Assembly: GCA_021199655.1 (NCBI GenBank)
Contig: JAJQHQ010000094.1
Coordinates: 1 to 51,858 of the forward strand
Origin: Lachnospiraceae bacterium
Lineage (GTDB): Bacteria; Bacillota; Clostridia; Lachnospirales; Lachnospiraceae
DNA length: 51,858 nucleotides
Direction: 5' to 3'
The translations under genes and the position numbers were made by a program. This document shows, in pieces, positions 4,214 through 36,966 of the stretch. The notes under the pieces were generated by a model. The model was not told the DNA's origin. It was given only the letters and a program-made list of their open reading frames with translations, and searched no databases. Position 1 is the stretch's first letter, and the number at the start of each line of letters is the position of its first letter.

Positions 4214-4380
4214 CGGATGACGAAGCTGGGAGAGATACAGAGAAGTACGCCGAAGGGGCTGAAGAACTCTCAGGCAAAAGGACCAGTTTCTGACGATACT
4301 CTGGAAAGCGGCATGGATTGCCGCGCCGAAGAAGCAACCGGGAGGATGGTCCCGGGAATCTTTCAGGTCACATGACAGAG
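4214..4380 (+). promoter_or_regulatory. Tandem (two-aptamer) glycine riboswitch
   Basis: Aptamer 1 shows the conserved blocks GGGAGAG (4228-4234), CGCCGAAGGGGC (about 4249-4260), ACTCTCAGGCAAAAGGAC and ACTCTGGA. Aptamer 2 follows at once: a GCGGCA/TGCCGC stem, GCCGAAGAAGCAA (from about 4325), a GGG/CCC stem, then AATCTTTCAGGTCA and GACAGAG. The order and core motifs match the glycine riboswitch family, and the downstream genes encode the glycine cleavage system. The closing stem of aptamer 2 can be formed by CTCTG (4299-4303) with CAGAG (4376-4380). That CAGAG overlaps the 5' arm of the terminator, so glycine binding should block termination. This predicts a glycine-activated ON switch. Confidence 0.93.
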
Positions 4381-4413
4381 CGCGAAACAGTTTATTTGTT
4401 TCGCGCTCTTTTT
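4377..4413 (+). terminator. Intrinsic terminator of the glycine riboswitch expression platform
   Basis: A perfect 12-bp stem AGAGCGCGAAAC/GTTTCGCGCTCT (4377-4388 with 4398-4409) has a 9-nt loop and a T run. Its 5' arm overlaps the last bases of aptamer 2. Confidence 0.92.
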
Positions 4414-35627: not shown

Positions 35628-36652
35628 TCATAGCAGATGTGCTGCCTGACAGGAGCAGCGGTACAAAAGTCTCCCTTCCCCATCCTGGATTTCCCGTACC
35701 CGGCCCGGATCTTCTCTGCCTGAAAGCACCACAAAACGCTCAAACATATGGTTTCGCTTCATCCTGCAAAGCAGCGGTTTTCGATCCAGTTCCTCAGGCG
35801 ACGAGCCGTGCACTGTAGCAATCAGCTTACAGCCGCAGGTAAAAACATGCTCCACCGCCAGAGCGTCCTCCTGATTTCCAAGCTCGTCCGCAGCAAGCAC
35901 CTGCGGCGACATGGACCGGAGAAGGAGCAGCATCCCCTCTGATTTTCCGCATCCGTCAAGCACGTCCGTACGCAGGCCGAGATCATTCTGCGGCACGCCA
36001 AGATAAGATCCGGCCAGTTCGGACCGTTCATCCACCACACCGACCGTACGCCCCGCACCATAACGGTTCCCGTCCGAAATCTGCCGGATCACATCCCGCA
36101 GCAGCGTCGTCTTCCCGCCTCCCGGCGGAGAAAGGATCAGCGTATGGCAGACCTCACCGCCTTCATACAGATAAGGCAGAAGTTCGTCCGCACAGCCTTT
36201 CCGCTCATGAGCGAGCCGGATATTCAGAAACGAAATATGCCGGATGCTGCGAATGCTATCTCTGCCGGATACGATCAGATTTTCATCTGCCGCATATTTT
36301 CCTGCAGTATCAATTGGATATCTCTCCGTCACCGCATGCCCGGCCAGGCCGATCCGGTGCCCGCCCGGAACCGTGAGAAAGCCCTGCCGCACTTCCTCAT
36401 CGAACGCATACAACGAGAATCCCGTGGCATACTCCAGCGTTTCTTTAATCTCCTCCGCCGAAATGCAGTAGCCGTCCTGTGCCCGGCCGGAAAGACATCC
36501 ATTTTCACAAAGAGTCATTTCCCGCCCGGAGAGTCGCAGCATCACAGGACGCCCGACACGCAGCCGTATTTCCTGCAGGCATTCAAAATCCAGATGACAT
36601 TTTCCAGCAGGCCGCGCACCGACGGTGCCATCAGACGATACACTGATTCCAT
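35628..36652 (-). CDS. spoIIIAA: Stage III sporulation protein AA (secretion-type ATPase), apparent frameshift near the N-terminus
   Basis: The long frame encodes a clear SpoIIIAA: LQEIRLRVGRPVML, Walker A LILSPPGGGKTTLLRDVIRQIS, VVDERSELAG, and MSPQVLAADELGNQEDALAVEHVFTCGCKLIATVHG. It powers the SpoIIIA complex in the mother cell. The best start is ATG at 36652, right after AAGGAAGGAG, giving MESVYRLMAPSVRGLLE, a typical SpoIIIAA N-terminus, but in another frame. Adding one A to the A4 run at 36600-36603 joins it to KCHLDFECLQEIRL without a stop. The span is 3n-1, as expected for one lost base. The alternative in-frame start at 36698 has no ribosome site and lies in repeat sequence. Confidence 0.88.
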
Positions 36653-36670
36653 GGGGCTCCTTCCTTTCTG

Positions 36671-36940
36671 TGACGACGCTTTTACAGTAATTCATCATTT
36701 TGCACCGCTACGTGTAAAAGCCGATTGCTTCGTGCTTCGCACTCTCACAATCGCCACCAGTATCTCCGCTTCCGCTTCGGTCGGTGCTAAACGCGTGCCA
36801 CTGGCACGCAGCACCGTAATCCGCTCATTTTTCTTCGAAAAATGGCTACTTGCTCATACCGGTTTGGTTGTCTAATGTCCAGTCTCTTAGCCATGCAAGC
36901 ATGGCTCGAGACTTGCCATTGACGACGCTTTTACAGTAAT
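36671..36940. mobile_element. 228-bp hairpin-rich insertion flanked by 21-bp direct repeats in the spoIIIA leader
   Basis: An identical 21-bp sequence (TGACGACGCT...AGTAAT) occurs at 36671-36691 and 36920-36940. The 228 bp between them carry several strong hairpins. One is CGGTGCT-AAAC-GCGTGCCA/TGGCACGC-AGCACCG (about 36780-36812). Another is AGTCTC-TTA-GCCATGC/GCATGGC-TC-GAGACT (about 36879-36911). A third is GCTTTTACA/TGTAAAAGC (36678-36686 with 36712-36720). No open frame with a ribosome site and no terminal inverted repeats were found. Removing the insertion plus one repeat would place the sigma-E promoter directly upstream of the spoIIIAA ribosome site. Whether the repeats are target-site duplications is inference. 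Confidence 0.65.
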
Positions 36941-36966
36941 ATATGGGACAGGTCTCAGGAATATGC
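36938..36966 (-). promoter_or_regulatory. Sigma-E promoter of the spoIIIA operon
   Basis: On the minus strand GCATATT (36960-36966), a 14-bp spacer and CATATATT (36938-36945). This matches the known sigma-E consensus (KMATATT, 14-15 bp, CATACANT) at all -35 positions and at all but one -10 position. It lies about 285 bp upstream of the spoIIIAA start because of the insertion. Confidence 0.8.

What the first reader, a model, noticed from the sequence alone, without database searches (positions are those of the whole stretch)
36671..36966. Hairpin-rich 228-bp insertion between a sigma-E promoter and spoIIIAA
A near-consensus sigma-E promoter (GCATATT, 14 bp, CATATATT) faces spoIIIAA but is about 285 bp away. 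The gap is a 228-bp block with three or more strong hairpins, bounded by exact 21-bp direct repeats. Deleting the block and one repeat leaves the promoter, about 37 bases, then the AAGGAAGGAG ribosome site, a normal layout. So a structured element seems to have entered the leader of an essential sporulation operon. Two of its hairpins share an architecture (outer 6-7 bp stem, 3-4 nt bulge on one side, inner 7-8 bp stem, tiny loop) with different sequences. A 21-bp target duplication is unusually long.
Basis: partly seen in the sequence, partly recalled or inferred. Interest (0 to 1): 0.75.

Follow-up and report, generated by a model that had tools for sequence, protein, structure and literature searches.

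The report
Mobile hairpin repeat before spoIIIA
The hairpin-rich block in front of a spore-forming operon is one copy of a small repeat that is spread through many related bacterial genomes; it was catalogued as a probable RNA but looks like a jumping DNA element moved by another element's enzyme.

Summary
In detail: exact 21-bp repeats (36671-36691, 36920-36940) flank a strongly folding 228-bp block between a conserved sigma-E-type promoter and spoIIIAA. The block is a copy of Rfam RF01699, "Clostridiales-1 RNA" (78.6 bits, cut-off 48). This genome holds 23 matches over the cut-off; one other genome gave 111 at E<=0.001. "An element entered the leader" is supported: a sister species (SpoIIIAA 97% identical) keeps promoter and both repeats but lacks the interior, a second relative has a reduced form, a third none. 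"A 21-bp target duplication" is not supported: 16 of the 21 bases are the element's own 5' end, left by a truncated tandem copy; at most ATTAC (5 nt) is duplicated target. Across genera the family behaves as a non-autonomous transposon: terminal inverted repeats, short duplications, deletion derivatives, variable copy number. The ends of one subtype match those of an IS1182-like insertion sequence in the same genome. No insertion sequence with the window subtype's ends was found. The fold is kept by compensatory changes, so structure itself appears selected, as DNA or as RNA. No regulatory role for spoIIIA is shown; the copies examined show no orientation bias to genes.

The parts
36960..36966 (-). 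sigma-E-type -35 (GCATATT)
   Evidence: kept in L031-L033; sigma-E consensus recalled
36938..36945 (-). sigma-E-type -10 (CATATATT); its last 3 nt lie in the upstream 21-bp repeat
36936..36940 (-). ATTAC flanking the element on the upstream side: candidate short target duplication
   Evidence: same 5 nt follow the element's 3' side at 36687-36691; relative L033, where no element is seen, reads CATATATTAC here. Against: TTAC before the element recurs in many copies of this subtype, so part of it may belong to the element
36713..36935 (-). Clostridiales-1 (RF01699) element, full-length match 1-166/166
   Evidence: cmscan 78.6 bits, gathering 48
36920..36935 (-). element 5' end (TGTAAAAGCGTCGTCA), carries the P1 5' arm; upstream copy of the 21-bp repeat is ATTAC plus this
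   Evidence: same end in L009 and L023, one base different in L010
36764..36815 (-). M1 module, bulged hairpin inside the element; its core GTGCCAGTGGCAC occurs 23 times in the genome
   Evidence: absent from copies L009 and L010
36722..36753 (-). P4 bulged hairpin
36713..36721 (-). P1 3' arm (GCTTTTACA), pairs with the 5' end
36692..36712 (-). remnant of a 3' extension that carries a further hairpin in other copies
   Evidence: comparison by eye with copies of the same subtype
36671..36691 (-). second ATTAC plus the first 16 nt of a truncated tandem copy (downstream copy of the 21-bp repeat)
36657..36666 (-). ribosome-binding site AAGGAAGGAG of spoIIIAA
35628..36652 (-). spoIIIAA (ATG after the ribosome site at 36652; the ORF list starts the body's frame at 36698)

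Best explanation
The block is a copy of a small non-autonomous transposable element (MITE-like) whose interior folds into a closed multi-hairpin structure, catalogued in Rfam as Clostridiales-1 RNA. Shown: it is dispersed in many copies; subtype A copies have terminal inverted repeats and short flank duplications; a related leader without it exists; and subtype A ends match those of an IS1182-like insertion sequence in the same genome. Inferred: such a transposase moves it in trans; the window copy (subtype B, other ends) moves by the same or a sister enzyme; it landed just downstream of the -10 box of a spoIIIA promoter with a shorter leader; a tandem second copy was truncated, leaving the 21-bp repeat; the interior was lost in the sister species. 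It adds about 250 nt of structured leader to spoIIIA mRNA if the promoter is used; I infer the effect to be tolerated rather than regulatory.
For: Rfam match. Own genome: 34 matches at E<=10, 23 over cut-off. At E<=0.001, 33 of 35 other genomes of the genus match, and 2 of 24 others of the order; in an order sample 101 of 392 at E<=1e-5. Matches per genome at E<=0.001: G003 36, G031 61, G007 60; G373 7, G416 111, G403 16, G385 93. Leader states in L031, L032, L033; at gathering scores none of 20 spoIIIAA loci L031-L050 matches RF01699, and L032 has a weak match (26.1 bits, E 0.094, below cut-off) over its leader. A left-flank suffix of >=5 nt recurs within 60 nt 3' of the model end in 34 of 77 copies; shuffled flanks: mean 6.6, maximum 14 in 200 shuffles; the commonest form, by eye, is ATNNNAT. 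IS1182-like IS in G007 (L206:474-2340) with ends TGATGCTGGGGTCAAAAC / TGATGTCGGGGTCAAAAC; the first differs at 1 of 18 nt from repeat ends in the same genome; end pattern 126 sites in G007 and 55 in G003, reversed controls 1 and 0. A decayed second IS copy in G007 is alignable from the first to the last base. A 66%-identical homologue in G373 has TGATGTTGGGGTCAAAA at both ends. Internal deletion derivatives occur elsewhere (L209; L338, L340, L351 by eye). The first 14 nt recur within 110 nt 3' of the element in 8 of 133 copies, reversed control 0. Downstream gene co-oriented in 12 of 21 own copies with a called gene (22 copies; L012, a tandem partner, and L024-L030 left out).
Against: The IS link is for subtype A; no IS with subtype B (window) ends was recognised at 30 inspected loci of 42 sites in G007; the frames there were not run against a family library. 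No PF05598 transposase matched in this genome. The transposase is below NCBIfam's IS1182 cut-off (124.9 vs 270). 12 other PF05598 transposases in 29 genomes show no convincing pair of such ends, only scattered weak matches; five of them have clear other inverted repeats, some are cut by contig ends. Of the 10 order genomes with an IS relative only one (G373) shows both ends exactly; others show one end, divergent ends or none. Four of those 10 (G273, G083, G206, G225) gave no RF01699 match (7 candidates scored per genome). The G373 copies I read (4 of 7) are subtype B although its IS has A-type ends. 43 of 77 copies lack a duplication of >=5 nt by the test used. Flanks of the intact G007 IS do not match each other. 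Strong covariation of the interior is not expected of an ordinary MITE.
Confidence: 0.8

Rival explanations
1. It is a genuine small RNA or RNA element (as Rfam files it) that is duplicated around genomes, and mobility is incidental; in the spoIIIA leader it acts as a cis-regulator.
For: 22 of 24 predicted pairs show compensatory double changes in 32 diverse copies, with few broken cells; conserved unpaired stretches; element on the spoIIIA sense strand.
Against: No orientation rule relative to downstream genes in 21 own copies; none of 20 related spoIIIAA loci matches RF01699 at the gathering score, with a weak match in L032 and a palindrome remnant in L031; Weinberg et al. marked cis-regulation 'n'; no transcript data.
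Confidence: 0.2
2. The 21-bp repeats are a true long target duplication of a recombinase-type integration (attL/attR-like).
For: Exact repeats; copies of this subtype often follow TTTACT or similar.
Against: 16 of 21 bases are the element's own end at other sites; no recombinase is encoded in the element.
Confidence: 0.03
3. Window, L031 and L032 received independent insertions at one hot spot rather than one insertion followed by deletions.
For: Tandem copies or tandem ends are seen in the family (L151, L106, L287, L314-L316).
Against: L031 shares the second truncated end and ATTAC exactly with the window, which favours common descent.
Confidence: 0.2

Closest known systems
Clostridiales-1 RNA, Rfam RF01699 (Weinberg et al. 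2010, PMC2864571; passages seen)
   Same: Window copy scores 78.6 bits over the full model; same folded architecture.
   Different: Filed as a probable RNA, not cis-regulatory; the passages read say nothing of mobility. Here the family has transposon-like ends, flank duplications and up to 111 matches in a genome.
IS1182 family, in particular IS1272 (PMC5678879; abstract, passages, sections 21 and 22 read)
   Same: About 16-bp terminal inverted repeats; IS1272L carries a tandem duplication of its 25-bp left end, like the truncated second 5' ends here; IS1272 recognises stem-loops.
   Different: IS1272 replaces target stem-loops and its new insertions had no target duplications; the repeats here show short AT-rich duplications and encode no transposase; the transposase found is only IS1182-like.
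Bacterial MITEs / palindromic repeats such as BOX, REP, ERIC (recalled)
   Same: Small, non-coding, dispersed, modular, hairpin-rich.
   Different: Interior with a conserved multi-branch fold maintained by compensatory change across genera; ends of one subtype shared with an IS1182-like element.

Membership tests
RF01699 Clostridiales-1 | score above curated gathering threshold, full model | tested here: met
   78.6 vs 48, positions 1-166
RF01699 Clostridiales-1 | is transcribed and acts as an RNA | not testable with these tools
   no transcript data held
MITE-like non-autonomous element | many dispersed copies, number variable between relatives | tested here: met
MITE-like non-autonomous element | terminal inverted repeats | tested here: inconclusive
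   clear in subtype A; in the window's subtype B the outer arms pair (P1) but the true 3' terminus is not settled
MITE-like non-autonomous element | short target duplication at this copy | tested here: inconclusive
   ATTAC both sides; 5 nt, one copy, next to a tandem remnant, and TTAC recurs before other copies
MITE-like non-autonomous element | autonomous partner with the same ends | tested here: inconclusive
   found for subtype A in G007; not found for subtype B; no PF05598 match in own genome
IS1182 family (partner transposase) | NCBIfam equivalog cut-off | tested here: not met
   NF033551 124.9 bits vs 270; hence 'IS1182-like' only
cis-regulatory leader of spoIIIA | conserved association with spoIIIA across relatives | tested here: not met
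   0 of 20 related loci at the gathering score; weak match in L032 only, among 6 loci searched laxly
long (21-bp) target duplication | repeat lies outside the element | tested here: not met
   16 of 21 nt are the element's end

The most novel reading that the evidence does not exclude
Clostridiales-1 is not primarily an RNA but a superfamily of MITEs whose conserved branched fold is the DNA substrate (extruded hairpin or single strand) for structure-dependent transposition by IS1182-like transposases. That would explain at once the covarying closing stem, hairpin-within-hairpin modules, tandem truncated ends and the deletion derivatives.
Probability: 0.4. Interest if true: 0.7.

Novelty: new variant of a known kind. 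Interest (0 to 1): 0.5.

Why it matters
It would reclassify a curated 'RNA' family as a mobile DNA family with selected structure, warn that covariation alone does not prove an RNA, and give a natural system for testing structure-dependent transposition. It also shows such an element in the leader of a sporulation operon in one genome, with a reduced form in its sister species.

Tried and rejected
IS200/IS605 TnpA as mobiliser: two PF01797 matches in the genome. The one near a truncated copy (L126; copy L030) is followed by a tnpB-like frame, named by eye, and shares no repeat ends that I could see; the other (L125) likewise. End pair in L183, 1.33 kb apart: I recognised no transposase in the enclosed frames, by eye only. 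Other PF05598 transposases: no convincing matching ends. Search for an IS with the window subtype's ends: none seen. Terminator in the leader: none found by the scan. Literature: 'Clostridiales-1 RNA' gave 2 papers and RF01699 gave 4; of these I opened PMC2864571 (passages) and PMC4081043, a false hit (orf01699); the others were seen only as listings. IS1182 with the MITE phrase gave 5 papers, IS1182 with palindrome and transposase 37, MITE with Lachnospiraceae and MITE with Rfam terms 212 and 9; apart from PMC5678879 these were seen as listings only, at most 20 each, and no title or abstract start shown there concerns this family. The library lacks most subscription journals, so I claim nothing about print beyond these searches.

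Full report
Observation. The leader strand folds far better than shuffles (z -5.8). The gene is spoIIIAA by Pfam and NCBIfam. A relaxed promoter pattern, written after seeing the relatives, is present in 37 of 60 loci with 420 nt upstream, against 0.25 in base-shuffled sequences.

Identity. cmscan of the whole window gives RF01699, Clostridiales-1 RNA, 36713-36935 minus strand, 78.6 bits against a gathering score of 48, over the whole model. In the passages I read, Weinberg et al. 2010 list it as a probable RNA, not cis-regulatory, not a switch, in Clostridiales and human gut.

Spread. The own genome has 34 matches at E<=10, 23 over the cut-off. Of 60 genomes (own included) 36 match at E<=0.001, 33 over the cut-off: the 36 are own, 33 of 35 others in the genus, and 2 of 24 others in the order. 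In an even sample of 392 genomes of the order, 101 match at E<=1e-5 and 93 are over the cut-off; only about 7 candidates per genome were scored there. Deeper searches gave 36, 61 and 60 matches in G003, G031, G007 and 7, 111, 16, 93 in G373, G416, G403, G385; for G007, G416 and G385 150 candidates were scored, so these are lower bounds.

Ends. Many copies outside this genome show an element longer than the Rfam model on its 3' side, for example 5' TGATGCCAGGGTCAAAAG and 3' TTTGACCCCAACATCA, with left-flank bases repeated after the 3' end. 34 of 77 copies repeat at least 5 flank bases, against a mean of 6.6 and a maximum of 14 with shuffled flanks (the 77 are L001-L023 and 54 copies of relatives, tandem partners included). 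Where both ends are complete the duplication mostly reads ATNNNAT (by eye). I call these copies subtype A. The window copy belongs to subtype B: TTTACTGT or similar, then a stem such as GAAAGTCC or AAAAGC, and a 3' extension with a further hairpin; its duplications are not clear.

Partner. A pattern for subtype A ends (up to 2 mismatches) hits 126 places in G007 and 55 in G003, reversed controls 1 and 0. One inward-facing pair in G007 encloses a 536-aa DDE transposase (L206, 1867 bp). Its best NCBIfam model is IS1182, below the curated cut-off. A decayed second copy aligns from its first to its last base, in pieces, which fixes the boundaries, and has a 7-nt flank repeat; the intact copy's flanks do not match. 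In 38 genomes searched for the protein, only three besides G007 matched, with fragments or weakly (G004, G009, G010). In the order sample 10 of 392 genomes hold a relative at E<=1e-60; 6 of these 10 hold RF01699 against 95 of 382 others (Fisher p 0.02; capped scoring, related genomes, one test). The 66%-identical homologue L237 has TGATGTTGGGGTCAAAA at both ends, and its first 21 nt equal the 3' end of a repeat copy in another genome (L274). The other nine show one similar end, divergent ends or none; several are partial. PF05598 gave 13 matches in 29 genomes; the 12 besides the G007 one show no convincing pair of such ends.

The 21-bp repeat. TGTAAAAGCGTCGTCA begins the element at other sites (L009, L023; L010 with one base different). 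So the downstream 21-mer is ATTAC plus the start of a second, truncated tandem copy. A strict test finds the first 14 nt repeated within 110 nt 3' of the element in 8 of 133 copies (4 of 92 A, 4 of 41 B by simple sorting; whole tandem copies included; L012 and L013 left out), reversed control 0. More divergent cases (L248, L253, L254, L258) were seen by eye. IS1272, of the IS1182 family, likewise has a form with its 25-bp left end in tandem (PMC5678879, section 21). Against a clean 5-nt duplication: TTAC precedes many subtype B copies; for it: L033, where I see no element, reads CATATATTAC at this point.

Sister sites. L031 (Lachnospiraceae U.9_8, SpoIIIAA 97% identical) has the same promoter, ATTACTGTAAAAGC on both sides and the same truncated second end, but the interior is reduced to the joined arms TGTAAAAGC/TTTTACA. 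L032 (76%) has a short form at the same point. L033 (74%) reads CATATATTAC directly into a short leader. cmscan finds no RF01699 at the gathering score in 20 related loci; in six searched laxly only L032 gives a weak match, 26.1 bits, over its leader. The simplest history is insertion before the window and L031 lineages split, then loss of the interior in L031; independent insertions are not excluded.

Structure. Over 135 copies there are 50 distinct pairs of closing-stem arms, 31 fully paired over 7 positions; 94% of positions pair, against 56% (maximum 66%) when arms are shuffled among distinct pairs (the ends were placed by a model that scores this stem, which biases the figure upward). RNAalifold on 32 copies, picked for diversity and for lacking long insertions, predicts 24 pairs, 22 with changes on both sides; it did not predict the closing stem, which the alignment does not hold in register. 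So the fold appears selected, which an ordinary MITE would not need. Either it works as RNA or it is the DNA substrate of transposition; IS1272's stem-loop-replacing model (PMC5678879, passages and section 22) makes the second plausible. This step is inference.

Function at spoIIIA. In 22 own copies the downstream gene is co-oriented in 12 of 21 with a called gene, by a simple ORF caller; no terminator-like site was found in the leader; the element is not a constant part of spoIIIA leaders. I infer tolerated insertion rather than regulation.

Noticed in passing
window 36590-36652 (minus): The reading frame that starts at the ATG behind the ribosome site differs from the frame of the conserved SpoIIIAA body near 36600; the sister L031 reads through in one frame. 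Real change or assembly error cannot be told.
   Followed up: partly
own genome, 23 sites (L127-L149); window 36764-36815: A second dispersed palindromic module (core GTGCCAGTGGCAC, 23 exact sites, reversed control 0) sits inside 4 of the RF01699 matches and at 19 other places, by eye often within unrelated outer stems.
   Followed up: partly
116 copies across genomes: Of 57 copies with a co-directional ORF of >=150 aa ending within 200 nt upstream, 25 have its stop codon within 3 nt of the element's 5' end (10 just before it, 7 using the element's first codon); at the model's 3' end the same holds for 3 of 43. Some copies are homologous sites in two species, and ORFs cut short by an insertion were not excluded.
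   Followed up: partly
L314 (G416:C4), L315, L316 (G385): Tandem arrays of the element, some joined through the short flank repeat, some by a shortened junction.
   Followed up: partly
L231, positions 176 and 1932 (the G007 IS): The G007 IS carries a subterminal inverted repeat TTTACAGTAAT, the reverse complement of the window element's outer end ATTACTGTAAA; may be chance.
   Followed up: no
window 4291-4388: Glycine riboswitch aptamer (Rfam RF00504).
   Followed up: no
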